Part shown: positions 5,226-52,936 of the stretch, one piece after another
How positions within the stretch are numbered: position 1 is the stretch's first letter
How the letters are laid out: each line of letters begins with the position of its first letter
Assembly: GCA_012976225.1 (NCBI GenBank)
Contig: JAAVVG010000036.1
Span: forward strand, 57,439 to 121,438
Origin: Golubevia sp. BC0850
Lineage: Eukaryota; Basidiomycota; Exobasidiomycetes; Golubeviales; Golubeviaceae
Direction: 5' to 3'
DNA length: 64,000 bases
Translations under genes and position numbers: made by a program
Notes under the pieces: model-generated
What the model was told of the DNA's origin: nothing
What the model saw: the letters and a program-made list of their open reading frames with translations, nothing else
Databases searched by the model: none

Positions 5226-5433
5226 CTTGAACTTGAATTGGTTAGAGATGGAGATTTGATGATAAGATATCCAATGCCTTTGATGTCTTTGTCTACCAGT
5301 AGACTGTAGTAGAGTCAGACAAGATGTTGTGGTCCCGAGTCAACTAGTCAACCGCGGAAGATTCACTATACCACTTTCTCTCTATCCAACGTCGCTCTCC
5401 TCTCCTCTTCCTCTCCCGCGAATCTTAATCAAG
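5226..5433. promoter_or_regulatory. Shared divergent promoter region
   Basis: This 208-nt interval separates the start codons of VPS33 (minus) and the ABHD11-like hydrolase (plus). It must hold both promoters and 5' leaders. No specific binding site was recognised. Confidence 0.4.
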
Positions 5434-7206: not shown

Positions 7207-7336
7207 GATTTGAGATGTGTTCTATAAACCTATCTTGGAAGAAGTTGGATGATTGGTGTTTGACAAGGGGAAGACCTGTGGAGTTTGATCTTGAAGCGTT
7301 TACAAGAGAAAGTAGAAGTGGGACGGATTCTCGTGT

Positions 7337-24892: not shown

Positions 24893-27800
24893 TTAATCGC
24901 TGAGCACTATAGGCTCCTCTTTAGAATTCTTCGTCAAATTCTCCTTCTTACCAGCAGACTTTGAGGAAGAGCTTGAGGAAATCAACATCACACTATCATC
25001 AGAATCCTGAAGTTCGACATCAGATTTAGAAACTGATTGATTTTGACTCCATTCCTTCCCCTTCCCCTTTCCAGTCCCAGAACCATCTCTACTCTTCCTA
25101 GGACTCTTTCTCTGACTTTTACCAATACCAACATCAAAAGCATCTGATGATGTTTCTTTCGGACTTCGGTTTCGAATCCTATTGTTAGTTTGAGTTTTCT
25201 CTTTAGGTTGATTCTTTTGAGTAGAAGGATTTGAGCTATTAGTTCTTCGGATTAGATCGAAAGCAGTTGGCAAAGATTCATCTGGATCATCAGAATCGTC
25301 ATCCTTGGAGAAAATTGAGGGTGAGGGTTTTGAGAGAGGTATAGATTTAGATTTAGGTAAGGTCGAAGAAGATGAGGCAGATTTGACTGGAGCTTTGGAA
25401 GAGCTGATAGGTTTCGATGAATGCTTTGTTGAGGCTTGAGAGGAAGCGGTGTCTTTAGATGATTTTGATTCTGACTTTGAGGAATTTGGCTCATCTTCAT
25501 CGTCACTATCTATGATGGTGATTGACTGGGGTTCTGTTTTCTTCAGTGAAGCAGCATTCTTGACAGAAGTAGACGAAGTCCTGCAAACCTCTCTCCGACT
25601 GGGGGGAGTGAATTCTCTTATACTTTGATTTTTCTTGAGCTTATCAGTAGTTGTTGAAGAAGCAGCAGGTTTCAAAGTGATGTCTCCATCGCCATCCAAA
25701 TCTTCCTCTTCCTCCGTATCATCATCTGATCCAAAGATATCATCATCATAATCGTCATCAGTTAAACCATATAAAGCTTTATTCCTTTTCTTCCCTTTCT
25801 GAAGTTGAGCCTTTGTTTTCGGTTTCTTCGATTTCTTCCCATCTTTAGCCTTCAACCCCAATTTCTTCCTACTTTCTTTTTCTTCTCTCTCTTCTTTTTT
25901 CCTATCTCCCTTTTCGTCCAGTTCCTTCATCAATTGTTTCCCTCTAGAATCAAACTTCAATAAATCTGAACTGATCCACATTCTAACCGGTCTCAAAGGA
26001 GGATCGAATTCTTTCTTCTTCTTCGGTTCTCCAGCTTCACCCTCAGCTTCATCTTCACTCACGTCCTTAGGTTTTCCATTCTCTGTTTCGACTTCGTCAA
26101 CTAGATCCATGTTGGCTCTTCTAACCCAACCAGTGGGATCGATTTCCAATCGATATTCCTTTACATAACCTTCCTCTTCTTTTCTTCTCCTAGCATGACA
26201 GGCAAGTAAGTAGCCCAAACCGTTCTCATGGGCCCATCTTTGAGCATCTTGCTGATTTGGAGGAACGCTGACTGATTTGGTGATGTCTTCAAAGTAGGAT
26301 TTAGAACCTAATGGAGTTGCAACCGCCGAAAGTGGAGAAAGTTCTGATAGATTTGAAGAATTGACCGAATCTGGAGTGACTGGATCAAGAAGATCAGGAT
26401 TGTTTGCACTTGGAGTTCTCCTAAGTTGAAGGGGTCTAGAAGGTTCGAATTGTTTGATCTTGAGGTTTTCAGAAGCTTCACCTCTATCTCTTTTCATCGC
26501 CTCTCTTCTTAATTGTCTTGAAGTCATTCCACCCCAAACCGTGGTTCTCATTTTGTTCAAAGTCTAGAAAGAAGAAGTGAAGGTCAGGGTTGAAACTCGA
26601 CTTAGGTAGACGCTGATTTCTGGAAGAAAGGTTCGAACTCACTTTAGCTCTATTCCAACCAAAAGCTTCTTGAGCACTCTTAGCGATCAACCTTGGATCA
26701 GGTTCTTTCCATTTGATCTCACTTCCATCCAATCCTAAACCTGAACCTGAATCTTCAGTAGTAGTTCTACCATCAAAACTATTAGCCTGTTCATACAGCT
26801 TCTTATCAATATCTTTTGAAGTCACAGGATAGACATAAGAATCTAAAGCTTGGATCTCTCTTTGAGTGGAAAGGAAAGAATCCAAAGCAGTACTGTTTGC
26901 AAGTTTAGGTTGCTTAGTAGTTCCTCTCCCTTCAAAGAATCCAAGAGAATCAGTTGCTAATTCGTGTTGAAGTTCCGAAATCCAATTAGCCAAGAATTTC
27001 TTCCATTCAGGAGTAGTAGTTCCCGGAGGCTTGGCCGGATAAGCTTTAAAAAGATGTTTAAGAGAAGAAGTAGGTCTTGAACTCTTGATGATGTTCCCAT
27101 CAGAAGAAACCAATCCAAAAGTAGGGGGTGGAATCCTTTGACAAAATTCCTTATATCCTTCAATCAATTTCTTACCAAAACCAGCTTGAGCTAAAGGGAT
27201 TGCGGTCTTCATTCCACATCCTTTCAAACCATCTGGATTGTAATCTCCCTTGGTCAAAAGTGCTATCAAAACCAAACCATCTTTGTCTAAATAAATCGAA
27301 GCATCTTCTTGAATGGCTTCAGCGTCATAAACCGTAACCCAAGCTTCTTTCCTTCTCTTTTCATCTTGTTTCCTCATGGTTTTAACCTCTTGTTCTTTCG
27401 TCTCTTCTTGAGCCTCACTTTCAGAATTCGAGAAATCGGAATCATTATCCTTTCTTCTTCTTCTCATTCTAGCCTGATTTGCTCCTGTATCTTTACTCCA
27501 ATTCAGTATCTGGCGTCGAGCGCCAAAAACCAAAGTATCGACGTCATCACTTAGAACTACGTCCACTAAACCTATTTGACTCAGATAAGCTAGTTCTGCT
27601 TCAGCTTCTCCAGGTGCTACTCTATATCTGAAGCCAAATGAATCGACTAGCTTCAAGAAGTCTCGTTGAAGAGCACTGAAACCGTTGGTGACTATGTTCT
27701 TGCCTCTCTTATGAAGTGGTCTTCCTGGACCATCACAGACGAAGAGTGGGTGAATTGGTAAAGCTAGAAGTAAACCCAATCTGTAAAAGAGGATCTTTAG

Positions 27801-28131
27801 AGGTAGATGAGTTAAATCAGAGGTTGAGGATTTTCCGGCTTGTTTGTTGAATATTAAGACTTGCTTTCCAGTATGAGCTGCTTGAAAGAACCAGATGGAG
27901 ACACTGTATGAGAGTAAGTAGAATGATCAGTCAGTATGTGACTAGTAGGCATCAACTAGGTAGAGGATGCTATTGTACTGACTCTATTCCAACGACCAAA
28001 GCTCGAGTCGGATGTCTTGAAGAAGAATCTGGATTGACTTGCTTCGAATTGAATGCTTGCAATGCCAACAGATTTAATGGAATGTCAAATCCAGCATCGC
28101 ACAACTCCTTCCAAAGACCTGCAACTCCCAT
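24893..28131 (-). CDS. YEN1: GEN1/YEN1-family Holliday-junction resolvase
   Basis: Three exons (28131-27983, 27903-26643, 26563-24893) give 1026 residues. The XPG N domain begins M-G-V-A-G-L-W-K-E-L, then V-V-G-I-D-V-S-I-W-F-F-Q-A-A-H and P-L-F-V-C-D-G-P-G-R-P. The XPG-I block has A-P-G-E-A-E-A-E-L-A-Y-L and L-S-D-D-V-D-T-L-V-F-G-A with the metal-binding acids. A helix-hairpin-helix follows (K-G-D-Y-N-P-D-G-L-K-G-C-G), then the fungal junction-binding region. The C-terminal 500 residues are disordered and charged, with two SUMO-interaction-like motifs (I-T-I-I-D-S-D-D-E-D-E and the C-terminal E-P-I-V-L-S-D). The enzyme resolves recombination intermediates late in the cell cycle. The first donor is GTCAGT, picked because it restores G-I-D-V-S-I-W. 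The seipin start is only 108 nt away. Confidence 0.92.
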
Positions 28132-30801: not shown

Positions 30802-31436
30802 AGTTGAGCTGTCGTGGTGATCTCTTTTGGAATGGATTGAAGGATACGGACGGGGTGTAAATTTCTAAAAAAAAAAACTCTTTCTCATCTTGATGGTCTC
30901 ATGTTTTCCCAGTTCTGTTCAGGTTCCCTTTTTCACGAAATGACACTTTTATACCCTACTTTTGTCTTTGTGAAGTGAGCTTGAAGTTGTTAAATCCAAG
31001 CAGCATTCGATCCTTTCAACATGGATCTAGCCTTGTGGAGTTTACTTGGATTGGAGGAGTTGGTTGGATTTGAGACTGTGCCGTTACAAGCTTGGTTTGC
31101 AACTTGAGAGGTGGCTAAGTCTTGAGCTTTGATCATTGAATTTGAACTTATCGAGGAAGAAATGGTGGTGGGAAAGAAGGAAGAGAAGAGGGAGAGAAGA
31201 GAAAAAAGACCTTCTCAGAAGAAACGCGAAACGCCAAATCTGAATGAAACGCGTGAGAATCTCAGCTTCCTTCATGACCACCACTAGAAACCTTTTTCTA
31301 ACTACAAGACCTTTCTTTTTCTCCTCTTGAAATTCGACTTTAAAGCTTAGTCCAGCTTCTAGGTCAATTTCATCTCCTGCAAGAACGTTCACTTCCGTAG
31401 GAACCCTCTAAGTGCTTCCTCTTTCTCAAAGATCAG
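30802..31436. other. Duplicated upstream block with relics
   Basis: From about 31090 this region is an inverted, diverged copy of the sequence around 46440-46620. On the minus strand it matches the start of the F-box gene there, but the ATG has become ATT (near 31165). On the plus strand it matches the presequence of AP endonuclease copy 2, with stops at 31328-31330 (TGA) and 31409-31411 (TAA). The first 290 nt hold the seipin 3' end and nothing else recognisable. Confidence 0.7.
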
Positions 31437-33266
31437 ATGGCTCCAGAAAAGCGCAAGGCAGCTGCTTCCGAGGAAGATGCCGCTACTTTTCAGGCTGAGT
31501 CAACAAAGAAAGTGAAGGTGTCACTTTCTGCTCCAAATTCAGAAGCTACTGAGCAGCCAAGTCCTCCAGAGATTCCAAGAAACAAGACTCTGCCAAACAA
31601 GCTCGAGTTTGAAGAACCTGCAGAGGGCGTAATTAGGATATCTAGCTGGAATATCAACTCAGTTAGTATCAACGGTTTGAAAGCTTGACTGGTTAAAGAA
31701 GGGAGTCAAGCGAGGGAGTGAGGCTTGGGCTTGGAGAATTTCCAGAGGCCTGGAGAAGTGAGATAAATCAAAGGACGGGAGCCTCCGATCAAAACGAGAA
31801 GCACTGCTCGGATTTTGATCAAGTGCTATGAAGCACTGAATGGCGTGTCTCTTGGATTGTCATCGATGGTCTGCTCGCAGTGGTTTGCTCTTACTCTTCC
31901 TTACTCTTTGCTCACTCTCTACTCCCTTTCTCTTTGCATCAATACTCTTTCCAGCTCTACGCCAGCAAGAAGAAAGGTTCGTTCAGATACATAGAAGCAG
32001 AAGACGCAGACGTTTTGGTCCTAACAGAGACGAGGGTGAGATAGGTTTCAAGTCAAAGCTTGGAGACACTTCTCTGCTTTTGACAGCCGTGTTCTGACAC
32101 TCCCCTGCTTTCCTAAATCCCCTTAATCTATCCTCAGCTCAAACGAAGAGAGAAGTTTGAGAAAGATCTTTCGAAAGAGCCTCCAGTCGAGACTGATAGG
32201 GAGATGAAGGATCTACGAGACATTTATCCCTATCGTTACTGGGGCTTCTCAGAGACGCTCGGATCTTCCGGGGTTGGCATCCTTTCGAAATCTGAACCTC
32301 TTTCGGTACAAATTGGACTTCCAAAGTTGAAGGATTATGACTCTGAGGGTAGAATCAGTGAGTCGGTCTTTCATCAGCATTTCTGTCCTTCGACGCTCTC
32401 TCTTTTGGGTCGAAGCTTTCTTCTGATCTGTTCCTTTACTCTTTCTCCTATACAGTCACTATAGAATTTGACCACACTTATGTCATTGGAGCCTACGTCC
32501 AAAATGCGGGGCAAAAGCTCAAGGTGCGCAAACATTTAGACCCCTCTCTTTCTCTTCCTCTAGCAGTTCGCTAACTCTCTTCTCGTTCTTCTTCCTCCCT
32601 CATTTTCCCGCACAGGCAATGCCGGAGAAGGAAAAATGGAACGCTGCCTTTGCGGCACACTTAGCAGAGTGCGACTCAAAGAAGCCTACGATCTGGTGCG
32701 GAGACCAGAATGTGATTCTCGACCAAAGAGACATCTCCGGAGCAGCGACCAAGTGGAACAGAAGACCTGGTTACACTGAGATCGAATGTGAAGCTCATAG
32801 GGATATCCTGGATGGCAAACATCGATTCGCTGAAGAAGGAATCAAAGTTAACAAGTTCAAGGATATTTGGAGAGAGCTGCATCCTGATGCTGTTGGTCAT
32901 TACAGTGAGTAGAGAATGTTTCGATAAGCTTAGACTTACGAGTGGGAATGTCGAAGCATATTCTGAGTACTGTCCTTTGCTTCATCCTTCGTTCAACAGC
33001 TTACTATGCCAACGGGGACTCAAGACCAGAAGGTTTAGGATGGCGTTTGGACACTTTCATTGTCTCAAAAAGGTTTGCTAGTAGGGTCAAGCAGTGTGAA
33101 ATAAGACATAAAGTGTATGGAGCTAGTGATCATGTCCCAGTCGTAAGTCGCCTTCCGCTCCCCCAAAATGCAACTCCATTTTTATGTTCTGACGCCTCCT
33201 AATCTTTTTTGCCTCTCCTGTACGCACCGCTTCATTCAGATTTGTGACATTAAAGGTCCTTTGTGA
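31437..33266 (+). CDS. AP endonuclease, ExoIII/APE1 family, copy 1
   Basis: Seven exons (31437-31661, 31955-32035, 32138-32357, 32456-32523, 32616-32904, 33000-33142, 33240-33266) give 350 residues. Catalytic motifs are in place: I-S-S-W-N-I-N, L-T-E-T (Glu), I-W-C-G-D-Q-N-V-I-L-D (Asp and Asn), G-W-R-L-D-T-F and G-A-S-D-H-V-P-V (Asp-His). The N-terminal 70 residues are Lys/Glu-rich with K-K-V-K, a possible nuclear signal. The enzyme cuts DNA 5' of abasic sites in base-excision repair. Exons 1, 2, 4, 5 and 7 have exactly the lengths of copy 2 (counting its exon 1 from the internal Met); exon 3 is 30 nt longer and exon 6 is 3 nt shorter. The first donor is GTTAGT, where copy 2 has GTGAGT. Confidence 0.9.
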
Positions 33267-33519
33267 TTCCACTATCCTCGTAGCCGTTCCGCTCCGCTCT
33301 CACACTCCTCTCCCCTCCAGTCATCATTCACAGATCATGCTTTGTAAATATTGCAATTCATTCACTTTTCGCATTGCGAGAGAGAGTCTAACCCCCCCTC
33401 TCTCCCCCAATAAAATCAGAATCCATAAGCTAGCATTACAAGATCTTGATAATTAATAGTACAATGATAATCTGGATTTACATGGCAAGTTGTTCTAGCA
33501 AATACATTCACTCGATATT

Positions 33520-36500
33520 TCACAATCCTTCACCCTCGTCATCACTCTCGTCCAAAATGCTTTTCTGACTTGAATAAGAATTTGATCTACCAAAAGCGGG
33601 TCTAGTTGAAGGAACCGAGGGAGCGTCGTTTGTAGCAGGCTTTGAAGGAATAGCTGGAGGAGGTGGCTTTGATATGGACTGAGTTGGTGCAGGTTGAGAG
33701 ATCGCTTGTGTCGTTGAAGATGGTTGCTTTGATGTGAAGGGATTCAACAGAACGAAACCATTGAGGGAGCTACTAGAAGAGTCGTCCGAGGACACACTTG
33801 AATTCTCATCTGAAAAATAGAAAAAGGCAGGAAAAGTTAGAAGGAGAGGCGAGGCGAAGGCAGACTAGGTGAGCAAGTGGCTTCTGATTGTTGGTTAGAG
33901 ACTCACCCATGTCATCCCACCAGGCTTGATCGCTACTAGAAGGAGGAGGCACTGGAAGATGATCGCAGGCGAAAAGGTGACATTTATCGGGGATCAGTCA
34001 CAGGTTTGACGCATCACTTCTTTAGAGCCTCTTTTTCGTGGCTACTCACGATCTTCATCTTCACCTTCTTCCTCGCTCTCACTTCCCTCAACCGCTAATT
34101 CATCTCCATCCCATTCTCCTCTAGCCACCTTGTCTCCCAAATTCTTCAGAATCTCCTTCTCAATACTCTCCTTTTTCAATTGATCCACCACTCGAACCTC
34201 AGCTTTGAAAGTGGCGTAAACAGGTTTATGATCACTAGTTCTCAATTCAGCTCTACCATATTCCAGCAATTCCAAACCATCACCTCGAAACAAAACTCTA
34301 TCAGTCCAAGCAGGAATCCTTTGTTTCTCACTTGAATCATAGTTGTTAGTCCCATTATCATATTTATACGTTGGTTTGAATTTGATCTCAGCTTCATTGA
34401 ATCCAGGAAAAACAGCTCCAATTTCTCTAGATCTGGTCAATTGATCGCATTCATAAAGAGTCTTCAGATCATTCTTAGAGACTAGATTTCGGACAGTGTC
34501 ATTTGGTAAATTGATCCTGTAATTGAAATCACCTAACCAAATAATGTGATCATGAGAAGAGATGGTTTTTCCACGTAAGAAAGTCATACCTCTTGAGATT
34601 GTCCAATAATCTGAATTCCTTTCTTCGAAGTTTGAATGACCGGCTGCTAAATGTGCAGTAATGAAACATAAACTTGAGTCGTTGAAAGTTAGTCGAATTC
34701 CAACTCCACCTTTGTTTCCAGACATTCCTTTCAAACCAGTTTTTTTGGTGACAGCTTCGACTTGTCTAATCAGACTAACTAAATTCTCTTTGACTAAGAT
34801 GATAAGAGCTGTTCCAACTAGTTGCTCACTTCTCAAGATCACATAAGAATCTAAAGGTTTCCAATTTCCATTCCTTCTGTTGATCGAATCGACCAGAGCA
34901 TTCTCCCAAATCCTGATCTTATCGGGATCAGTCAACAAGATTTGCTGAGGAGTGAGTTGAACGATTTCTTGAAAAGCGAAACAGAAAATGTCAGGTGAAG
35001 GATCTTGATTTGGAGGATTGATCCAAGGTAGTAGCGATTCTCCAGGAGGTTTTCCGTTCAAATTGAAAGTTCCGGAATAGATCGAGATGGTTTTTGAAGT
35101 TGAGTATTCATTCAATCGAGAATAGAGTTCAGAGGACATTGCATCGTGAAGAGGATCGTAAATTGTGACTGGACTTTGATTGGCCATGTTTCCAAGTAGA
35201 ATGTCGACTACTGCTTGCTTTCCCTTGTCTTGGAAGTTGTTGATGTACATTCTGGAATGGAAGCGAGAACAGAGAAGAGCTCATCAGTTCCGCTCCTCCG
35301 AGCAGAATGAGTGATCAGAAACTCACCTCCCAGCACTCTTAGCAGCGTCACTCAGTAGACCACCCAGTGTTTTCTTCCCACTTCTAGTGAAGCTGGAATT
35401 CAGGGCTCCAGTTCCAGCATAGATCTTGGATAAGGCTGTCGAAGGAAAAAAAAAGAAGAAATGGAGAAATTCTGTCAGTCATGAGTTAAAGGAGAACCGC
35501 AATCGACATACTAGAGACTCACCATCTCCATTCTCAGCCCACAAAACTCTGTGATTCGACCAAAGACCACCACTAGAGGATTTGAAGACCTCAAAGCTCG
35601 GTCTCCTAGGAGCAGCAGATTCAATGAAACCTTCCATCGTAGATTGAGATAACATATCTTGAACTACATTCGTTCGATCCAAGCTGAAGAGAAATAGCCA
35701 GCAATGAAAATAAGGAAAGTCAGACAAGGGAACCATGTCGAACCTACTTCTCGAAAAATGCGGCGAACTCACCAATCCAAACAGTTCGTCCTAAAAACTC
35801 CTCTCTGACCTCTAACTTTCTTCCCCTCAAACATAATAGTATAACTAAATTCTTTCTTTTTAATACCGACCGGACCCAAGTACTTAATTTCATCTCTAAC
35901 TCCATCTAAACCTCCATTAGCTCTAGAAGCTGAATGGAAATCAAAATTCGTAAGACCCAAATTCTCAATATCTTCTCCTTCTTTATCATCATCTGCATGT
36001 TTCTCCTGGAATTTAGTGATGGAAGTATGTTTGACATGTTCTCCATAACTGTTAGTCAGAACCACTTCAGCATCTCTAATTCCTAAAAGATTAATTGCTT
36101 GAACGTGTTTATAATGATTGATGAGATCTTGAAAATGTCGGTCAAAGGAAGGTTGAGATGCGATTCTGGGACGAGTGATTTGGATTCGAGCGTTTAAAGC
36201 TTGTAAGCCTGTTTGTTCCCAGAAGAGAGGAACTGAACCTCTGACTTGGACGTGGGAATAAAGGACCGAGTCGTGGGAGAAGATGGTTTCCGACTGAAAG
36301 ATAGAGAAGAGAAGGATCGTTGTTCAGGGGTTGGAAAGTAAGAGTTTCCTCGAGAAATCTTTTGAATTCTGCAGAGTCAGGAATTGGGAACTTACTTCTA
36401 CGAAATTAGCAGCATTCCCATCATCATCTATACCTCTAGTGTTAAATCTCGTGCCGGCTCTTTTCCAACTCAATCTGCTAACTAAAGCTATTGTAGATTC

Positions 36501-37754
36501 TGAAGAAGTGGAAGTCGTTGAGGGTGAAGATGAGGGAACTGGAAGAGTGAAAACTCCAACGTATCCTTGAATCAGTAGAAGCTGTGTGAGAAGATGAGCA
36601 AGGTTGGAAAGAGGGGAGTTGAGTATTGAAGCTCAAAGATGCTGAAGAGAAGACCAATGACGAAAAGGGAAGATTCACTCACTATCATAGAACTATCATC
36701 TAACCTCCTCCTCTCAACACTGCTCAACCTACTCCTAAAATGAAGTAAAGGTTCAATCAGATAATTGTTCCAAACGAATCTTTCATCATAAACCAATCGT
36801 TCTTCTTCTTCTTCCTTGTGATTCTCATCTCCTTCAGGTTGATTTTCAAACATATCGACTCTACAACTCAAATCCTTCCCCCTCTCCTTCCCAACAGATT
36901 TCGAGAAATAAAAAGCTCCACTTGAAAGTAATTTCTTAAGAGAAGAACAAGGATGTTCATAACCTGAAGCTTGAGTGGATTGAGATTGAGAAGGTTGATA
37001 ATAATCGTTAGAGTTGGGATTTGAAGAACCGTAAGGATCGAGTTCTGATTCATAGGATGAAGAAGATGTTAGAGAAGTATCATCCCAAGATGATTTTGTT
37101 AGGGAATAGAAAGAGAGAGATAGGAGCTTTTGAACGGAACAGGAAGGTCGGATCTGACCTATTGGGAGGGAGGAGGTTGCTAGGGCTAGGAAGATGTCTG
37201 GTGAAAGATGGAAGAAAGGGGTAGGAAGAGTTTTAGAGGGGCGTCAGGGAAGGAGAGGTGAAGAGAATGTAGAGATGGAGATGAGAGTATGAGAACATTA
37301 GAATAAGCCTGGACTGGACTCTCTCTCTCTCTCTCTCACACACACACTCCTTCTGACTGAGTATCTGAAATATCAGCGTACTTTTGATTCTATCATCATC
37401 ACTCTTCTGTCAGCATCACTCCTACTCTCTGTCTATCTCGTCTTGCCTTGTCTCTCATCCCACCTCGACCATCTCCATTCTCTCTCTCTACTCACCACTA
37501 CCAACATTGATCAACCCAACCAGACCCAAAACGTTTCCACCTAGCCTAGTCAAAGTAGAGATGTCTATCTGGTCTGTTGTAGTCAATTGAATGATTAGCC
37601 TTGGAGCAGAAGTGGATCTACCTTGCTGATTGGGTGCTGTGGAGAAGGTTAGAACCGTCTCACTTGAAGTCGAATCATTTGGATTGTTTACCAGAACTAT
37701 TGATCGATTAGATGAAGAAGAAGATGGTTGATCTATCAGATAGGCTTGCATCAT
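33520..37754 (-). CDS. Synaptojanin-type Sac1 plus inositol 5-phosphatase
   Basis: Nine exons (37754-37496, 37197-36683, 36581-36396, 36293-35773, 35683-35523, 35435-35327, 35251-34050, 33951-33907, 33809-33520) give 1095 residues. The Sac1 domain shows [39 protein letters not shown] and the catalytic C-x5-R loop N-C-L-D-C-L-D-R-T-N, split by an intron. The 5-phosphatase domain has [24 protein letters not shown] and S-D-H-K-P-V. The C-terminal tail is Pro/Ser-rich with one N-P-F motif, the type bound by EH-domain endocytic proteins. It matches yeast Inp52/Inp53, which hydrolyse PI(4,5)P2 during endocytosis and Golgi traffic. Confidence 0.94.
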
Positions 37755-37888
37755 TCAGATGATGATTGAATCTGGGGAGGTGAGAGAGAAGTGGATTCCA
37801 TTAGTATGGTGCCATGTCCCCTCGAGCGCGGGCGGAGGGGCGCGAGAGGGGATTCCATCTGCTTGACAACAACAACACAAGACTCAAA
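37755..37888. promoter_or_regulatory. Short divergent promoter region
   Basis: 134 nt between the synaptojanin-type and TUG/UBX4-like start codons. No site was identified. Confidence 0.35.
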
Positions 37889-39287
37889 ATGGAATCTCAA
37901 GCACAAGATACAGAGGTTGATAAGCAAATAGAATCAAACTCAGATGAAATGGTGATAGACAGGCAATCAATCGATACTACTGCCACTGCCACTCAACCAC
38001 CTCAAGAGTCAACTCCTACTCCTTCCACTTCAGAACCTGCTACAGTTCTTCCTCGGTCCAATCCAACTACAAATTCCAACTCAAGCTCAAGTTCACTCCA
38101 AAACGTTCGAGTCATCAAACCACCAAGAACCGATGGTCCATGTGAGTTGATTTGTCAAATAGACGTCAGAGATTCGATCAGACAGATGAGCAATGAGGAT
38201 GAGGATGAGGTGGCTCAATTTCACAGAGCAAACCAGCTTCAGCTAAGATCGTAATTAGATTCATGATAAGAGTAGAGATCACTGGAGTATCTCATCAGAG
38301 TCATCGATTCCACCAGAGCTCTGCGATTAGAGACTGAGACTCTTGACTCTAATCTCTGAAGCCGCCTTCATCCTTCTCACCTTCCTCCTCTTACTAACCT
38401 CTCTACCCTTATTCTCTTTCAGCATCCTACCTTCCACCTCCTAACTCATCAGAGCCCTCTTCACCAGGTACCTCCTCTCCGACCCCAACTTCTTCAGAAC
38501 TGAAATCCGCCTTCGCTGGGACTCTAGCAGGTAGGAATGGTCCTAACGCTCCTTTAATGACAAAAGCCATGAGAGAGAAAGAAGACATCAGACTGGGTAG
38601 AGTGAAGAAAGAATGGGAAGAGGTGAGTAAACGAACACATCCCCTTCGGATCACTACGCATCTGGATTCGTCAAAAGTCAAGTTGCTTCACAATACTAAC
38701 TCAACCCCCTTCTTTAACCGTCAGGTGAAAATCCGTTTCAGATTCTCAGATCGAACTCAATTAGAAACCACTTTCCCAGTCACTTCCACTCTCTCTTCCT
38801 TATATTCCTTCCTTCCAACGACTCTCTCTTCTCCTCTCCAGAACAAGTTTACTCTTTATCAAACTCCACCTCGTAAAGATCTACTTCTAAAAGATTCAAA
38901 GCTCAAAGACAAAACCTTGAAAGAATTAGGATTCGTACCTCAAGCTGTCATTTATGTTAGATTTGAAGATGCAAGTCTAAACGAGACGAGTAGGAAACCA
39001 CCTTTGAAAGAGGAATTATTGCATGGAGCTGAAGATTGTGAACCTCCTAAGGGATTGGATGAGAGGAATATCAATAAGATGGAAAGTTTGGGGACGGGGA
39101 GAACATTGGGTGGAGGTGAAGAGAAGGAGAAAGAGGAGGGGAAGAAGGAAAGGAGTAGTGGGAATAAGGTGAGTTCCGAGGTGCAAGATTTGAAAGATCC
39201 TTTAGGTGATGCTGATGAAATTCCTCTCATCGTCTTTCTCTTTTCTAGGCTATGCCTAAATGGTTGATGAAAGGACTCAAGAAATAA
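37889..39287 (+). CDS. TUG/UBX4-like UBX-domain protein
   Basis: Four exons (37889-38141, 38423-38622, 38725-39168, 39249-39287) give 311 residues. An N-terminal Ser/Thr/Pro-rich region is followed by a conserved helix (M-T-K-A-M-R-E-K) and the UBX fold: V-K-I-R-F-R-F-S-D-R-T-Q-L-E-T-T-F, L-Y-S-F-L, F-T-L-Y-Q-T-P-P-R-K, and A-V-I-Y-V-R-F. The last, 39-nt exon gives P-K-W-L-M-K-G-L-K-K, the K-W-L ending common in ASPSCR1/TUG and Ubx4. These proteins bind Cdc48/p97. The usual N-terminal ubiquitin-like domain of TUG is not visible; in-frame Met codons upstream add only a short Arg-rich stretch. Confidence 0.82.
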
Positions 39288-40696
39288 ACTTTTCACTTGG
39301 TTTGACTATTTGGTTTCAAGTCCAGAGGATTTTTGTTTTCAGGTTTCTCTAATCGGAGGGAATACATCATGTAACTATCATCAAAGCTAATTTTCAACTC
39401 TCATTCCTTTCGATCGAATCGTGGTCTCCCGAAGAATGAAGATCTTTGGTTGGACAGTTTGAATTCAGACCCACTTCTTCCTCTCCTGTCTGCCTTTAAA
39501 GCGTTGAACGAAAAGGGAAAGAAAACTTCCGGCTTATTTGAAAACAAGGCTTGGTCAGGTGCTCTCCTTACAGAAATGAGCTTGAAGGAGTGAATGAGAA
39601 GTGATGTTGCCTCGTATTTGAAGAAGAACCTCCAATTCTGACCCTCTTCTCATTAAACTTGAGCTTCTAACAGGACCCGAAAGTAAGGAAGGGAGATTGA
39701 AGTTTGATAGGGATGGGAGCAATGCTATGAGAGAAGTGCAATTTTTCAAAATGATTTCTTCTGCAAACTTCCACGTTTCAGCTGTCTCTTTGGTCGAAGA
39801 TTCAAATTTGGATGATCCATGTGATGAGTCAAAATTAGGATGATCAAATACATTATCGGACTCTAGAAACATTTCGATGAAGAATAGAAGGTCGATGACT
39901 CTCAGCTACTCAAAACTTGTCCAATCTTCCACAAGGCTTCCCTTGCTATTGTTTCGTCTGAATGCATATTCTCATGGCTGCTCTATCTTTTTCGAACCAA
40001 CATCCATTTCGAGAAATCCAGGTCATTTGAGACGCAACTCTTTCTAACAGAAGTTGAGCAAACCAAATGCAGTGCTGAGATCCCCAAAACTCCTTAACAA
40101 TCACTTCCGCCCAGCAGATTCCCTCTTCTTCAAAGCTGTACTCTAAATCTTTCAAACCGTTCGCCTCAAGCGTGAGATCAGATAGAAAATTCGACTTGAG
40201 AATGCGGGACAACTTCGCAGTTCAACGGAATGATCCAACATCCCACTGACTGTCGCCAACAGGAGATCCGCGAAACCCCATTTCACATCCCGAATGCAGA
40301 CCTCCAGAAGCTAGTCAACTTTTGTGATTAGATAAAGTTGTGTATTAAGGTCTAGAAAATCCAACGGGACCCGAAGAAGCGGTGATGTGCATGTGATGTT
40401 CCGAGCGGACATCTGCGAGCGCGCTTTGAAATCACCACCCAACAAATTGGTCTATAAGAGACGACTCTCCTCCCTCATTTTCTTTTTTCCTCACCTAAGC
40501 AGTCTTATTTCCCTTCCTTCTTATACCTTCTCTTCTTCTTCTTTCAATCACGTAACAAGTTACCTCAAAGTGATCCTACCATCTCTCATCTTCTTCTCTC
40601 CTCTCGTTATCCTCTCTTTGCTTTTAACTTTCAATTTAGCCTCTCAACTCATGCCTCCGCTTTGGTTTGCCCAAAAGAAGATTACAACCAATCGTA
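39288..40696. other. Gene-poor stretch
   Basis: Minus-strand frames at 39555-39872 and 39946-40212 are open but show no dependable motif. The latter has faint leucine-rich character and might be an eroded F-box/LRR fragment. The last 100-200 nt probably hold the promoter, and perhaps an unresolved first exon, of the cysteine-rich protein gene. Confidence 0.4.
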
Positions 40697-41663
40697 GCTA
40701 GCACACCTGCTATTCCAATTAGAGCTACCAAGAATGGTAACGGCTTCAATGCCATCAGAAACGTCAGTCAAGTTTCCAAAAGATCCAAAGCGTGAGTACA
40801 TGGCGGTTCAGTAGAGAGTTTCTGTTTCGAGTGGCTAAGAATCCTTCTCGAAGTAGCTGACAAGAAAACTCTCTATTTCCATCTCCAACAACACTTTCCT
40901 CTTGGTTCTTGAAGGGTAAACATGTGAGTCGCAGAAGCAAGAGAATGTCGCCTTGACCTTGATCCTTCCTCTGAAGCTCTATATTGAGAGAGAGTCTGAC
41001 AACTTCATCTGACCCTCAAGCGATGACAGGCTTCAATCACGTCAAGATGCCTGCGATCATGATTTCTTTGAATGTAGTGATAAATCAGGTTGCTGCGTGA
41101 GTCGGTGTCCCTTGAGGTCACCATTGGAAAAGCGACCCCTCATCTCTGTCTGGCCCTTACTTTTTTTCAACAGACAGCTGGATATGACCAGACTCTTGTT
41201 GTCGTGAGTACATGACAGTCGTTGTCAGCCCTACCCAATGTGTGACTCTTTTGACAAACTTTATTTCTTGCAAACTTCGATGATTCCCAAAACAGCCACG
41301 GCCCTAAACGCCGAAGGGAACTGTCTCATAACTTACAGCGACTGTCAGGTTGAAGGCTCCCTCTATGCTTAGGTCAACATTTCTGTTGCCCCATTGGAGA
41401 CGCTTGCAACGATGATGGCAGGTAAGTGCTGTGGATGGAATGAGTTCTCTGGAAGCTGGAAGCCACCTTCATTTGAGAATTGCTTCTAATGCTCTTTCTT
41501 ACATGGGTTTTTCTCCAACAGCTGTGGAGCACCAACCTCTCCCTCTGGAGTCGTCACTTCAGGTTCTGTTCAACCCTCAGCTTCCGTCCAACCCTCAGGT
41601 TCTGTTCAACCCTCTGCTTCTGTTCAGCCTTCAGCTTCCGTTCAACCTTCGGTTGTTCAATAA
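40697..41663 (+). CDS. Cysteine-rich protein with SVQPS repeats, incomplete model
   Basis: Coding pieces: up to 40791 (A-S-T-P-A-I-P-I-R-A-T-K), 41030-41096 (D-A-C-D-H-D-F-F-E-C-S-D-K-S-G-C-C), 41174-41203, possibly 41296-41347 (N-A-E-G-N-C-L-I-T-Y-S-D-C), 41373-41421 (F-C-C-P-I-G-D-A-C-N-D-D-G) and 41522-41663. The first two and last two join in phase. The last exon ends in about five tandem S-V-Q-P-S-A/G units (18-nt repeat, about 41563-41655). Paired cysteines and a Ser/Pro tail suggest a secreted or wall-attached protein. No signal peptide exon was found and the middle exons do not join in one frame, so the gene may be damaged or mis-modelled. Confidence 0.45.
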
Positions 41664-42070
41664 TTAGTCCTGTTTCCTACCTTTCCCCCTCAAAAATCCA
41701 AATATCACTGTTGTAATTAACTCAGCTCTAAAACTTGAACTGACTTGTCTCTTTTTCCTTGAGACTTGAAGCTCGAGTGAGGGCTCCTCTTCAGCCATAT
41801 TTCTCAACTTTCATTACTTGAAAGCTTCAGATTCAGTTGCGATACTTTCTCACGAAGGAGAGACAGAGTTATTTCTGTTGGACGTCTCACACGACAATAC
41901 GCAATAAGGGAAATTTTATTGGGTTTTCTCTCTCAAAAGTCACTAGTCAAACACCACCACCACCTTATCTTTCACTCAAAGCTGCAATCCTCAGCAAAAG
42001 TCTCTACAAAAGCAAGCAAGTCTTCTACACTCTCTCCAAGCAGAATCGAACCGAGTCTCTCTCTTGATCC
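41664..42070. other. Intergenic, no gene seen
   Basis: 3' flank of the cysteine-rich gene and promoter of the DnaJ gene. No coding signal. Confidence 0.5.
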
Positions 42071-44141
42071 ATGAGTTCACTAACTCTACCATCTCGACCA
42101 AAAGAGAATTACACTTCAGTAACTTGTCCTTACGTTGATTGCAAAGCTTCAATCGAATATCTACCTCCAACTTCTTCATCGGTATCATCTCTACCGTCAA
42201 CTGTCAACTCTTTCTCAGTGACATGCTGCAAATGCAAAAAGAACTTTGATCCACCTGGATCTGGAAGGCTTCTACGAGAAGCTAGAGCTAGCGCAGGCGG
42301 GGATGCGAATGGTGCTGATAAGAAGGTCTCAAAAAAGAGGAGGATTGGAACCGACGAGAATCCTTTGGATATGACTTAGTGAGTTTTTAGATTGGCGAAG
42401 GATAAAAGGTGGTGGAGAGGGGCTGCGCAAGAGACAGAGAGAGAGAGAGGCTTGACATGGAGGAGCGGTCTTTGATCGAAGGGTGCTGGACAGATTGAGA
42501 CAGTGTTTGCAATCTTTTCCTATTAGTGGGGGAAGAAAAGAGAGGCTCAGGAGATAGTAAGGTCGACTGAACCCTCTCTCCTCTACCTCCCTCCCTCCTC
42601 CCTCACTCCTCCCAAAGCTACGATGTCCTCTCTCTTCCAGCCTCAGCTACCACGATTGAAATCAAGAAAGCCTATCGACGCTTAGCAATTCAACTCCATC
42701 CCGACAAGAACCCTAACGATCCGGAAGGAGAAGAAAAATTCAAGGTCTTAGCAACCGCCTACACAGTCCTTTCAGATCCAGAACTGCGTCACAAATACAA
42801 TGAATTTGGATCTTCAACCCCAGGATTAGCACCAGAGGATGGATTCGTAGATCCAGAAGAAGTATTCGGCTCCTTGTTCGGTGGAGAGCGATTCCATGAT
42901 ATTATCGGAATCATCTCTATCGGAAAAGATATGAAAGAGGCTCTACAAGAAGATACTGAAGAATTGGAGAAACAAGCTGAAGGAGGCGGAAGTGGAACTG
43001 AAGCTTCAAATGGAGAGAAGAACGAAGATGGAACTTTGAAGAAAACAGATGGCAAACCGACTTTAACTCCAGAACAAAAAGCAGCAAAAGAGGAGAAGGA
43101 AAAGAAAGCTAGTGAAGAAAGAGCTAAGGCTAGAGAAGAAAGGGTCTCCAAACTAGCTGAGAAACTGATCAGGAAATTGTCGATCTTTACAGAAAGTGTT
43201 AGAAATGCTGGAGATGAAAGATTGGAAGCTGAAGTCGCGGCTTCTTTTAAGGAAATCACTAGGATCGAAGCTGAAGAATTGAAGAATGAAAGTTATGGAG
43301 TGGAACTTCTCCATTCTGTTGGATTCTCTTATAGTTCAAAAGCTGCTCATTACTTGGCTAGTACTGGAATGCTGTGGGGAATCGGTGGTGCTTTCCATTC
43401 GGTGGCTAGCAGTTATCATGTTGCTAAGGAAACGATTTCCACTGTGAGAGCCGCTCTGGAATTGAAAACTGTGTTTGAAGAGTTGGCTAAAGCTGAGGAA
43501 ACTGGTATTACTGAAGAGAGGAAGAAGCAGTTGGAGGAAGCTGCTGCTGAAAAAGGGTGAGTTTCGAAAAAGCTTCAGTGGGAACTGATTAATTGACTAA
43601 TACGATGTGCTGACCTCCTCTTCTTCTCTCTTTTTTTGAACTCAGTATGCGAGCTTTGTTCAAGGGTGCTAAACTTGAGGTTGAAAGTGTTATCAGAGAG
43701 GTCACGGAACGGGTTCTCTACGATCAGTCGGTCGGCAAGGAGACAAGACGACTCAGAGCTACTGCCCTTGGTGAGTTTGAAACAGAATAATGAGTGAAAT
43801 CACTCATTGTCTCTTCTCAACGTTTCGATGGCATCTCATGAGCGTCAATCTGATTTCCAAGTCTCTTTTCTAAACACCTAACCCTTGCCTTTCTCCCTCC
43901 TCCTTCAGGAATCGTCGGAGAAGTTTTCTCATCAGTTCAACCAGATTCTAGCTCTCAGACTCAGGGTCAATCAGCCGACAGCGAATACGTCAAGGTTGAT
44001 ACCAAATCCTCAAAGGCGAGGGCGAAAGAAGAGGTTCCTCCACCCAAGAGAGAGGTTCCAAAACCACCAACTGACAATGGAGTACCTTATGAAGCTTATA
44101 AGAGACAATCTAAATCTAAACCCACTGTCTCTCAAACTTGA
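42071..44141 (+). CDS. Zinc-ribbon, DnaJ and DnaJ-X protein (Caj1/Djp1-like)
   Basis: Four exons (42071-42378, 42618-43556, 43646-43770, 43909-44141) give 534 residues. Residues 15-60 hold a Cys4 pattern: C-P-Y-V-D-C (Cys19, Cys24) and C-C-K-C (Cys52/53, Cys55). The J domain follows at about 103 (Y-Y-D-V-L-S-L, Q-L-H-P-D-K-N, A-Y-T-V-L-S-D-P), with the HPD triad intact. A DnaJ-X domain covers the middle and C-terminal part (F-G-G-E-R-F-H-D-I-I-G, H-S-V-G-F-S-Y, L-W-G-I-G-G-A-F-H-S). Caj1 and Djp1 are Hsp70 co-chaperones; Djp1 aids peroxisomal and mitochondrial import. Those proteins start directly with the J domain, so the N-terminal ribbon is an addition. Exon 2 begins at a less usual AAAG acceptor. 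Confidence 0.9.
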
Positions 44142-44418
44142 TTGGAAATAGACCTGATACCTTTTTTCGCTTCAAGTTTTTCATCATCTTGTCCCCCCCT
44201 TTTTTTGATTCTTTCCCTTGTTCTTCCTCTTCACATCTTTTACCATAGAAATCGGAATGACATTCATTCACCAAAGGATAGCAGTTGATTCTTGTAGCGA
44301 GCGTCTGAAGAAATGCATTGATTGGAAATGGAATTGCAGGATGGAAAAGAGGCGATGAGTTGCGAGAACTTGGCAGAAAAAACGGGTGAAAGCGACTTGG
44401 AACCAGGAAAAAGAGAGA

Positions 44419-45121
44419 CTACAAAGGTCCCTCAATGTCACAGATCTGAGGAGGAAAAAATCGATAAATGCATTGAGTTAGCAAGTGATTTCGATTCTTG
44501 TGCTTTCCTTCGATAGAAACAATCAGACTGAAACTCACAACTGGAACATGATCACTAGCGCCATAAATCGTTTGTCTGATTTCACATTGCTTGACTTTAT
44601 TAGCCCATCTCTCCGAAACAATGAAAGAATCTAAGCGCCAACCTAAACCTTTCGGACGACACTTTCCTCTCATTCCGTAGAAAGCTGATGGATGACAAGA
44701 TGAACGATGGATGTCAGAGATAGTCTTCAGAGTCTGGACTTGAACAGCGAGATGTTCTTCTCTAGCCGAGAGAATTGGCAGATTGAACTGCGTAGAATGG
44801 GTCTTCACTCACAATAATGACCAACAGCATCAGGATGCAGCTCTCTCCAAACATCCTTGAATTTGTTGACCTTAACTCCTTCTTCAGCAAATTCATGTTT
44901 ACCATCCAAGATATCTCTATGAGCTTCACATTCGATCTCAGTGTAGCCAGGTCTCTTGTTCCACTTTTGTTTGGCTCCTGAGATATCTCTTTGGTCGAGG
45001 ACGACGTTGAGATCTCCACACCAGATTGTAGGCTTCTTTGAGTCGCACTCAGCTAGATGAGCGGCAAAGGCCGTATTCCATTTCTGTCTGTCCGCCATTG
45101 ACTAAAGGGAGGCAAGGTGCG

Positions 45122-45158
<37 letters not shown>

Positions 45159-46431
45159 CAAACCGTCATCAGAAAGTGGCGGAGCTTCGAACTATTCAAC
45201 AGGGTGTTCGCTGACCTTCAGGCCTTCTCCAGCGTTGACAACGTAGGTACCGATGACGTAAGTGTTCTCAAATTCTAGAGTGACTGGAGAGATGGAAGGG
45301 TTAGAGAGGAAGTGAAAGGTCAGCAGAAAGGCTGGGAAGTCTCGCAAGTTCCCAAGAAAGTTTGAGCTGATAGAGACCTCGGACTCACTGATTCTACCAT
45401 TAGAGTCATAGCCTTTCAAGTTAGGTAAACCAATCTGCTTCGAAATGGCTTTGGTCTTCGACAGAATTGCGACTCCAGCGTATCCTTTCTTCGTTCCAAT
45501 TCCCCAATAACGATAAGGATAATTGTCACGTAAAGGCTTCATGTCACTTGCAATTTCAACGTCCTTTAGCTCGTTCACCTGGCAGAAGGAGCATATAAGA
45601 AGAGTAGGGGAGGTGAGTTGGGGTGTTGAGGCGGAGAGGTCTGACAGAGAATGTCCCCTTTGCTCTGTATCCCTCCAAATCCGCGAGCTCACCTTAGTCT
45701 CTGACAGTACCACGACATGTGCATTCTCTGCGTCGATGTATTCGAGGAGACCCTTCTTTTTGCTGGAATTCAGCTGATAAATGAGAGGAGGGCGGGTAGA
45801 GGGAGAGTTAGTTGGCTGCACCTTGAAGATAGTCGCTTTCGAGCTAGCAGGATCCGATAGTAGAGAAGGAGAGCTAAATCCCAATCTTCCGAGCTCCTAA
45901 TACCGTCAATCAATTGCGATTTGTGAGGTTCCGAGGATGGGAGCCATCAAGCATGTACTGTACTGTACCAACAACACCAACACCCTCCCTTCTCTTCCCC
46001 TTCCCTATACCTCATCGACCTCAAGGTTGCTCTGAATCATAGATACTCACTGAGGTGATATTCCAGCAAGAGATTCTAATCGAACCTTCCGCAGGCGGCT
46101 CGAACTCGAGGCCTTCTGGCACGGTCTCATTCCTTGGAATCTCTGGAGGAGCTGGTTGTTCTGTGGCTTCCGCGTTCGGAGAAGAGAGCGAATTAGAAGG
46201 AGCAGGCTTTGCCTTCTTTGTACTAGCTTTGGAAGCAGAGGCAGCTTCCTCGTCTGGCTTGCGCTTTGGTGCCATCTTGCTGGAGATAACTACTTGGAGA
46301 GATCTAGAGGAAGTGAATGCTCTTACAGGAGATGAAAGCGATCTGTGAGCTGGAATAAGCTTCAAAGTCGAGTTTAAAGAGGAGAAAAGTAAAGGCCTTG
46401 TAGTTAGAAAGAGGTTTCTAGTGATGGTCAT
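44419..46431 (-). CDS. AP endonuclease, ExoIII/APE1 family, copy 2 with presequence
   Basis: Seven exons (46431-46051, 45773-45693, 45578-45389, 45283-45216, 45101-44813, 44684-44539, 44445-44419) give 393 residues. Starting at the Met equivalent to copy 1 (46275) gives 341. The extra 52 N-terminal residues are Arg/Ser/Leu-rich without acids (M-T-I-T-R-N-L-F-L-T-T-R-P, then V-R-A-F-T-S-S-R-S), a strong mitochondrial presequence. Motifs: I-S-C-W-N-I, L-S-E-T-K, W-C-G-D-L-N-V-V-L-D, G-W-R-L-D-S-F and G-A-S-D-H-V-P-V. Two start sites could give mitochondrial and nuclear forms from one gene. A further in-frame Met at 46461 is possible. Its 5' end faces an F-box gene 107 nt away. Confidence 0.9.
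45126..45154. repeat. (GA)n microsatellite
   Basis: An almost uninterrupted GA tract inside the intron between exons 4 and 5 of AP endonuclease copy 2. Copy 1 lacks it at the matching place, so it arose or expanded after the duplication. Confidence 0.9.
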
Positions 46432-46538
46432 GAAGAGAGCTAAAATTCTCACGCGTTTCATTCAGATTTGGCGTTTGGCGTCTCTTCACTTTGACAAAGA
46501 TCTTTTCCTCTTCTCTTCTCTTCCTTCTTTCCACCACC

Positions 46539-46986
46539 ATGTCTTCTTTGATGAATTCAGATTCCGTCTCTCAAGGTGCGAACCAAGCTTTCAACGGCGC
46601 AGTCTCAAATCCAACCACATCCTCCAATCCGCCTCTTCCAAGCCCTTCCATCACCAACTCAATCCGCCTGCTTCCTCAAGAGGTGCTCGAGATGATCTTC
46701 AACTTCGCCTATCTATCTTCAAGAGATCAAACGTTATTTAGTACGTCAAGACTTCTACCCTCTATCATCCCCAACTCTCTATCTCTCTGATTCCTTCGAC
46801 GAGAATCTCTCTCAAATGTCCCAGTGGATCCAAGCAAACTCTTCTGTTCAAAGAAACATGAAGAGATTGGAGATCGATTTTGAAGATGTTATAAGTCTCC
46901 AATTGCTGAGAGCCTCTTTTCCCTCGTCAGCTCTCTTTCAATCTCGGAAGATCCTCATAGAGAACCTTCTTCGCCGGGGTGACTAG
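46539..46986 (+). pseudogene. F-box gene, frameshifted and truncated
   Basis: The frame from ATG 46539 encodes a Ser/Asn/Pro-rich start and an F-box (R-L-L-P-Q-E-V-L-E-M-I-F-N-F-A), then stops after 83 codons. A second frame beginning at about 46745 carries on the same protein (Q-D-F-Y-P-L-S-S-P-T-L-Y-L-S, then M-K-R-L-E-I-D-F-E-D-V) to TAG at 46984-46986. The two frames differ by one base around 46741-46745. A GTACGT donor lies there, but no acceptor gives the second frame. The usual LRR portion is missing, so the gene seems both shifted and short. Its first exon belongs to the block duplicated at 31.1 kb. Confidence 0.6.
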
Positions 46987-52736: not shown

Positions 52737-52815
52737 GCTTGAAGGATGGAGGTGTCGATGTGTGGTGTCGGATGAAGAGAAGAAAGGTTTCGAGACTTTT
52801 CATTAGGTCTCGCGA
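51538..52815. repeat. Inverted repeat, left arm
   Basis: Position x here pairs with 115538 minus x on the other strand. Four open frames compared across the arms are identical in length and translation. The match stops exactly at 52815/62723, just beyond a C-G-C-G-A motif upstream of DMC1. The outer limit is not visible because the window ends. Confidence 0.92.
52705..52815. repeat. 111-bp direct duplication, first copy
   Basis: Identical to 52826-52936, with only the run of Ns between. It spans the DMC1 start codon and upstream sequence. Confidence 0.95.
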
Positions 52816-52825
52816 NNNNNNNNNN
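52816..52825. other. Assembly gap of 10 Ns
   Basis: Ten N characters placed between two identical 111-bp segments. The length looks like a fixed placeholder, and the overlap is of the size of an assembly k-mer. Confidence 0.97.
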
Positions 52826-52936
52826 GCTCTAGATGCCTGCGTGCCAGTACGAGACATGCTTGAAGGATGGAGGTGTCGATGTGTGGTGTCGGATGAAGAG
52901 AAGAAAGGTTTCGAGACTTTTCATTAGGTCTCGCGA
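52826..52936. repeat. 111-bp direct duplication, second copy
   Basis: Repeats 52705-52815 including the first 38 nt of the DMC1 reading frame on the minus strand, then runs into unique sequence. It carries no complete gene. Confidence 0.95.

What the first reader, a model, noticed from the sequence alone, without database searches (positions are those of the whole stretch)
31274..46431. Inverted AP endonuclease paralogues: one kept, one lost the mitochondrial presequence
Seen in sequence: both genes have seven exons with nearly identical exon lengths and homologous 5' flanks. Copy 2 has an open 52-codon Arg/Ser-rich presequence from 46431 to the internal Met at 46275. The same stretch in copy 1 begins ATG at 31274 but meets TGA at 31328 and TAA at 31409 before the shared start at 31437. 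Established: APE enzymes must serve nucleus and mitochondria, often through alternative starts. Inference: after duplication copy 1 became nuclear only and copy 2 carries the mitochondrial supply.
Basis: partly seen in the sequence, partly recalled or inferred. Interest (0 to 1): 0.75.

Follow-up and report, generated by a model that had tools for sequence, protein, structure and literature searches.

The report
Paired repair genes, one without presequence
Two old, inverted copies of a DNA-repair enzyme gene sit 11 kb apart in what looks like a fungal genome; one can be read with a mitochondrial address tag in front, and the other carries a broken version of the same stretch that seems to have been copied there long after the genes split.

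Summary
Copy 1 (+, 31437-33266) and copy 2 (-, 46275-44419) are ExoIII/APE1-type AP endonuclease genes with seven exons each, the same intron phases, 70% protein identity and conserved catalytic residues. 2 of 20,000 shuffles match it. In copy 1 the stretch has TGA 31328 and TAA 31409 and is out of frame with 31437, so unspliced it adds no presequence.

Exon dS is about 1.2 and introns are near shuffle level, yet a sharp 349-bp block (31048-31396) with leader and 51 presequence codons is 86% identical. It was most likely copied from copy 2 to copy 1 long after the duplication; the frame is lost at its downstream edge.

Best reading: copy 2 is a dual-AUG, nuclear plus mitochondrial gene; copy 1 is nuclear only. 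This is a new member of a known kind. No transcript data, fungal relative or whole genome was available.

The parts
31437..33266 (+). Copy 1 AP endonuclease gene (ExoIII/APE1-type), 7 exons: 31437-31661, 31955-32035, 32138-32357, 32456-32523, 32616-32904, 33000-33142, 33240-33266; 350 aa
   Evidence: Spliced by homology with GT..AG introns; TIGR00633 173.0 bits, PF03372 68.1 bits, APEX1 2o3c 5e-39
44419..46275 (-). Copy 2 AP endonuclease gene, short form from M46275, 7 exons: 46275-46051, 45773-45693, 45578-45389, 45283-45216, 45101-44813, 44684-44539, 44445-44419; 341 aa (403 aa from ATG 46461)
   Evidence: TIGR00633 177.4 bits; with the 403-aa form 5cfe 6.7e-42 and APEX1 2o3c 4.3e-41, PF03372 76.2 bits
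46276..46461 (-). Copy 2 MTS-like presequence, 62 codons; ATGs at 46461 and 46431, both with T at -3; ten K/R, no D/E; RAF|TS resembles an R-3 cleavage motif (motif recalled)
46273..46275 (-). Copy 2 downstream start in stronger context (A at -3, G at +4; rule recalled), followed by MAPKRKP...TKKAKP (NLS-like by eye)
31244..31330 (+). Copy 1 relic of the presequence, now a 28-codon upstream ORF (ATG 31244, second ATG 31274) ending in TGA 31328-31330
31397..31436 (+). 40-nt tail between block and start: TAG 31398-31400 closes the enzyme frame upstream of M31437, TAA 31409-31411 lies in the relic's frame; identity to copy 2 at shuffle level (14/33) and a 7-nt length difference
31048..31396 (+). 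Copy 1 half of the young high-identity 5' block (relic of the divergent ORF's start, leader, 51 presequence codons)
   Evidence: ML segmentation 273/318 identical against 52/147 on the left and 14/33 on the right
46309..46630 (-). Copy 2 half of the high-identity 5' block
46539..46790 (+). Divergent ORF read away from copy 2 (ATG 46539, 83 codons, stop at 46788-46790), weakly F-box-like; its first 92 nt lie inside the block and the rest continues beyond it only on the copy-2 side
   Evidence: PF12937 E 0.098, 12.9 bits against cut-off 24.3, for the piece 46557-46787; no family at E 0.001 for 46434-46790
31253..31436 (+). Possible, untested leader intron in copy 1 (GTGAGA..GATCAG) that would remove the relic and give MKR-MAPEKRK
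   Evidence: enumeration; donor score 2.2 (12 real donors 1.5-11.5 leave-one-out), acceptor 4.6 (real 1.2-11.1)

Best explanation
Two ancient inverted-duplicate genes encode ExoIII/APE1-type AP endonucleases. Copy 2 is a dual-AUG gene. Starting at a weak-context ATG (46461 or 46431) gives a form with a basic, acid-free presequence imported into mitochondria. Ribosomes that scan past start at the stronger ATG 46275 and give a form with NLS-like basic runs that goes to the nucleus. Long after the duplication, a block of about 349 bp with the leader, the presumed promoter and most of the presequence was copied, most likely by ectopic gene conversion from copy 2 into copy 1. It ended out of frame with copy 1's start, or later lost the frame, so copy 1 now makes only the nuclear form and carries the relic as an upstream ORF. 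Shown: gene structures, homology, conserved catalytic positions, the lesions, the block and its edges. Inferred: protein destinations, leaky scanning, promoter position, direction and mechanism of copying.
For: Gene models and family. Catalytic positions kept in both copies and in a bacterial ExoIII: N72, E100, Y179, N182, D218, N220, D303, D329, H330 (copy 2 numbering from M46275). Pairwise dN/dS 0.17, dS 1.22, 70% identity. Amino-acid rates not different with any of 4 outgroups: copy-1-unique against copy-2-unique sites 17/16, 16/13, 17/18, 14/15. Presequence unlikely by chance: 2 of 20,000 shuffles, 1 of 129 ORFs. Contexts: T at -3 for ATGs 46461 and 46431, A at -3 for 46275, the weak-then-strong pattern described for dual-localised fungal proteins (PMC7049704, passages). 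Young block: presequence 4-fold sites 20/22 identical against 46/96 in exons, Fisher p 2e-4, and against 12/23 in exon 1, p 0.007. Five of six introns, the 3' flank and the upstream sequence lie within 1 SD of shuffles; intron 5 is at z 2.2. Sharp block edges. The divergent ORF runs on past the block only beside copy 2.
Against: No RNA, protein or localisation data. The presequence frame shows only weak codon constraint (syn 9/38 sites, nonsyn 12/109, Fisher p 0.06). The amphipathicity peak is unremarkable (1618 of 5000 residue shuffles reach it). A possible leader intron in copy 2 (GTGAGA at 46452, CACAG ending at 46343, acceptor score 6.9) would cut most of the presequence out. Selection on promoter or leader DNA could also keep the block alike. 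Exon 5 is nearly as alike at the nucleotide level (0.83), though its 4-fold sites are not (16/26). The divergent ORF could instead have been lost beside copy 1 by a deletion, so the direction is open. No fungal relatives were available, so the ancestral state is untested.
Confidence: 0.55

Rival explanations
1. One reading: an ancestral dual-targeted gene duplicated with its leader, and copy 1 simply lost its presequence by mutation; the 5' block stayed alike because promoter and leader DNA are under selection in both copies.
For: The block covers the leader and the start of a divergent ORF only 77 nt away, so a compact two-way promoter could be constrained. The relic still resembles the presequence in frame (39 of 49 non-stop codons give the same residue).
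Against: Even 4-fold sites of a reading frame that is dead in copy 1 are 20/22 identical, while exon 4-fold sites are 46/96. Identity is fairly even (84-89%) with sharp edges. Such even constraint through a dead presequence is unlikely.
Confidence: 0.25
2. The leader is a 5' leader intron or plain 5' UTR in both genes, both enzymes are nuclear, and the copy-2 open frame is fortuitous.
For: A GTGAGA donor, a CTAAC branch-like site (by eye) and pyrimidine-rich stretches are present in both leaders; acceptor 46343 scores 6.9. Codon constraint is only p 0.06.
Against: The donor is weak (2.2 where 12 real donors score 1.5-11.5 leave-one-out). An open leader with no acid and at least ten K/R arises in 2 of 20,000 shuffles, and none of the other 128 ORFs has both no D/E and at least 9 K/R in its first 62 residues.
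Confidence: 0.2
3. Copy 1's lesions are sequencing or assembly errors and copy 1 also has a presequence.
For: The window has one assembly gap, with duplicated contig ends, at 52816-52825.
Against: At least three separate changes are needed: TGA 31328, TAA 31409 and the frame difference, with TAG 31398 in the enzyme frame. The only run of N in the window is 21 kb away.
Confidence: 0.04

Closest known systems
APE1/APEX1 (ExoIII family AP endonuclease)
   Same: Related by sequence (2o3c E 5e-39 for copy 1, 4.3e-41 for copy 2), catalytic positions conserved
   Different: Human APEX1 mRNA isoforms encode one polypeptide (PMC6651865, passage); here copy 2 has an N-terminal MTS-like leader. Copy 1 has S in place of the Y of the GYSG motif and one residue fewer than copy 2 in the loop before GWRLD
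Dual-AUG, dual-localised fungal proteins (Cryptococcus and Neurospora tRNA synthetases and others)
   Same: Weak upstream AUG, in-frame targeting-like leader, stronger downstream AUG (PMC7049704, abstract and passages)
   Different: Here no ribosome profiling exists, the product is a repair nuclease, and a linked paralogue carries a broken leader
Paralogue pairs with one mitochondrial and one cytoplasmic member (RRS1/MSR1 in S. cerevisiae, AlaRS in Vanderwaltozyma, as described in PMC7049704, passages)
   Same: One copy with a targeting sequence, one without
   Different: Here the leader seems to have been recopied between old paralogues before or while it was lost
Apn1 (EndoIV) and Apn2 (ExoIII) of fungi
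   Same: Apn2 is ExoIII-family (PMC7917787, PMC4666366, passages)
   Different: Both copies here are about 350 aa and only PF03372 was found, without the zf-GRF domain that PMC7917787 reports for Apn2 of S. pombe and C. neoformans, so they look APE1-like rather than Apn2-like

Membership tests
ExoIII/APE1-type AP endonuclease | Family profile above curated cut-off | tested here: met
   TIGR00633 173.0 and 177.4 bits against 99.05; PF03372 68.1 and 76.2 against 24.5. Three narrower ExoIII models (TIGR00195, NF010489, NF008733) match below their cut-offs
ExoIII/APE1-type AP endonuclease | Catalytic residues (roles recalled from APE1): N, E, Y, D..N, D, D-H | tested here: met
   Invariant in both copies and in the bacterial L001 protein. 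Of 63 columns invariant in four outgroups, 24 are changed in at least one copy
ExoIII/APE1-type AP endonuclease | AP-site cleavage activity | not testable with these tools
   Needs a biochemical assay
Dual-AUG dual-localised gene (copy 2) | In-frame AUGs, weak first and strong later | tested here: met
   T at -3 for 46461 and 46431, A at -3 and G at +4 for 46275; the -3 rule is recalled and this genome's own start consensus was not derived
Dual-AUG dual-localised gene (copy 2) | N-terminal extension with mitochondrial targeting features | tested here: inconclusive
   Ten K/R, no acid, 2 of 20,000 shuffles; amphipathicity not unusual; no trained predictor on hand
Dual-AUG dual-localised gene (copy 2) | Transcripts start upstream of both AUGs and both are translated | not testable with these tools
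   No RNA or ribosome data
Dual-AUG dual-localised gene (copy 1) | Open in-frame extension upstream of M31437 | tested here: not met
   Only 12 codons, without ATG, to TAG 31398-31400; relic out of frame with TGA and TAA. Single GT..AG introns of at least 40 nt within 31001-31436: 17 candidates, longest added peptide 32 aa, with acidic residues, none MTS-like by eye
Gene-conversion tract | Block of higher identity with sharp edges between diverged paralogues | tested here: met
   31048-31396, 273/318; log-likelihood -247.7 for three segments against -262.2 for two and -311.9 for one
Gene-conversion tract | Phylogenetic incongruence across relatives | not testable with these tools
   No fungal relatives found

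The most novel reading that the evidence does not exclude
A mitochondrial-presequence leader was pasted by ectopic conversion onto an old paralogue out of frame, turning a targeting signal into an upstream ORF (or a new leader intron) that now tunes the nuclear-only copy.
Probability: 0.25. Interest if true: 0.5.

Novelty: new member of a known kind. Interest (0 to 1): 0.36.

Why it matters
If true, it is a compact natural case of how a dual-targeted repair enzyme divides its nuclear and mitochondrial jobs between paralogues, with the broken and open leader side by side in one genome. It also warns that a 'lost presequence' can be a late arrival rather than a remnant of the original duplication.

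Tried and rejected
Whole-genome search for further paralogues: no genome is held, so whether copy 2 is the only mitochondrial AP endonuclease (for example beside an EndoIV-type Apn1) cannot be said.

Relatives: the viral-contig scan found none; the genome-contig scan confirmed one bacterial ExoIII, L001, used as an outgroup and as the third row of two alignments.

Asymmetric decay of copy 1: not seen; rates do not differ against any of 4 outgroups, though only 29-35 informative sites each.

Copy 1 regains a presequence by splicing: not found for single GT..AG introns of at least 40 nt within 31001-31436 (17 candidates; none gives a basic, acid-free extension of useful length). Introns that end inside exon 1, or upstream exons before 31001, were not tested.

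MTS amphipathicity as evidence: dropped, because 1618 of 5000 residue shuffles do as well.

F-box naming of the divergent ORF: not established (PF12937 E 0.098, below cut-off, whose query lacked the first six codons).

Literature: eight searches listed, by title and start of abstract, no paper on a dual-AUG ExoIII-type AP endonuclease pair in fungi; some lists were capped (10 of 377, 15 of 40, 5 of 6). I saw passages only of PMC7049704, PMC7917787, PMC3764193, PMC4666366 and PMC6651865.
Full report
What was checked. Both genes were re-modelled from the DNA. Copy 1 (+) has exons of 225, 81, 220, 68, 289, 143 and 27 nt, and copy 2 (-) of 225, 81, 190, 68, 289, 146 and 27 nt. All twelve introns are GT..AG, and the cumulative lengths give the same phases at six of six intron positions. 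The proteins (350 and 341 aa from the shared start) are 70% identical.

Corrections to the observation. In copy 1 the matching ATG is 31244. The relic there meets TGA 31328 and TAA 31409 and, in addition, is out of frame with M31437 (163 nt from 31274); the enzyme's own frame upstream is closed at TAG 31398-31400. An unspliced copy-1 transcript can therefore add at most 12 codons, with no ATG among them.

Is the copy-2 presequence more than chance? Dinucleotide shuffles of the 186 nt left the frame open in 794 of 20,000 cases. It was open with no D/E in 5, and open with no D/E and at least ten K/R in 2. Among 129 ATG-started ORFs of at least 62 aa in six frames of the window, it is the only one with no D/E and at least 9 K/R in the first 62 residues (cut-offs chosen after seeing it). 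The -3 bases are T, T and A for ATGs 46461, 46431 and 46275, which is the weak-then-strong pattern that PMC7049704 (abstract and passages) reports for dual-localised proteins in Cryptococcus and predicts for Neurospora. Against this: the peak hydrophobic moment is ordinary (1618 of 5000 residue shuffles reach it), and codon constraint in the presequence frame is only suggestive (9 of 38 synonymous against 12 of 109 nonsynonymous sites differ, p 0.06; dN/dS 0.42 in this frame against 1.10 and 0.84 in the other two).

What the enzymes are. Both match the ExoIII profile TIGR00633 (173.0 and 177.4 bits, cut-off 99.05) and Pfam PF03372. Closest solved relatives include APEX1 2o3c and 5cfe. The residues at catalytic positions (roles recalled from human APE1) are invariant in both copies and in a bacterial ExoIII. 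Copy 1 has S where copy 2 and all four outgroups have Y in the GYSG/GYAG motif, and it is one residue shorter than copy 2 in the loop before GWRLD (DNA-contacting in APE1, recalled). Both copies depart from the outgroups elsewhere too: 24 of 63 outgroup-invariant columns are changed in at least one copy. Pairwise dN/dS is 0.17, an average over both lineages, and relative rates do not differ against any of 4 outgroups. Neither copy looks like a dying gene.

The main new point. The two gene bodies are old: dS 1.22 overall (0.85 to 1.73 by exon), 4-fold sites 46 of 96 identical. Five of six introns, the 3' flank and the sequence upstream are no more alike than shuffles; intron 5 is slightly above (z 2.2). 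Yet one stretch, 31048-31396 against 46630-46309, is 273/318 identical, and a three-segment likelihood fit places its edges there (52/147 to the left, 14/33 to the right). Inside it identity is fairly even: 76/91 in the start of a divergent ORF, 66/74 between the ORFs, 131/153 in the presequence. Presequence 4-fold sites are 20/22 identical, against 46/96 in all exons (p 2e-4) and 12/23 in exon 1 (p 0.007). The block was therefore most likely homogenised much later than the genes diverged. The divergent ORF (ATG 46539, weakly F-box-like, PF12937 E 0.098) runs on beyond the block only beside copy 2, and in copy 1 its ATG is ATT. This suggests, without proving, that copy 2 was the donor; a deletion beside copy 1 would look the same. 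The frame of copy 1's presequence is lost where the block ends, with a 7-nt length difference in the 40-nt tail. So it may never have been in frame with copy 1 after the copying event.

How it most likely works. Copy 2: a weak first AUG gives a mitochondrial form, and leaky scanning to the stronger AUG gives a nuclear form. Copy 1: nuclear form only, with the relic as a 28-codon upstream ORF that may lower its translation, or with the relic spliced out by the possible intron 31253-31436 (donor score 2.2, weak). Gene structures, lesions and block are shown; destinations, scanning and conversion are inferred.

In the sources seen, APEX1, APEX2 and Apn1 are nuclear and mitochondrial (PMC4666366, passage), but human APEX1 mRNA isoforms give one polypeptide (PMC6651865, passage). 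UNG1/UNG2 are a repair-enzyme pair with distinct N-termini (same paper). In Cryptococcus, the Uve1 endonuclease has a long mitochondrial form and a short form from a later transcript start; the short form lacks active-site residues and did not complement, so it is not a case of dual targeting (PMC3764193, passages). So alternative N-termini are a known device in repair enzymes and in fungi, though not one I saw described for APE1-type enzymes.

Limits. No whole genome is held, no fungal relative was found in the two collections scanned, and no trained targeting predictor or RNA data were available. That the window is fungal is inferred from gene content and intron style and was not tested.

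Noticed in passing
51538-52815 and 62723-64000: 1278 bp that are exact reverse complements of each other. One copy lies beside a 10-N gap (52816-52825) whose two sides repeat the same 111 bp (52705-52815 = 52826-52936), which looks like unmerged contig ends; a RAD51-family ORF (51081-51824) overlaps the first copy. Assembly artefact or very recent inverted duplication.
   Followed up: partly
2085-2164 and 7204-7280: 80-bp inverted repeat, 91% identical, possibly a small mobile-element remnant.
   Followed up: no
26484-27926 and 51081-51824: An XPG-I nuclease ORF (GEN1/Yen1-like by eye) and a RAD51-family ORF in the same 64-kb window as the two AP endonucleases; probably chance clustering of repair genes.
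   Followed up: no
5284-5787: ORF with a stretch (MIQKGFTSCLSVLPKRIPCSIHG...RSLHTSKATLS) that also looks like a mitochondrial presequence by eye.
   Followed up: no
34042-35280: Between the two copies lies an ORF matching PF22669 (Exo_endo_phos2) and, weakly, PF03372: a distant relative of the AP endonucleases, probably an inositol-phosphate phosphatase.
   Followed up: no
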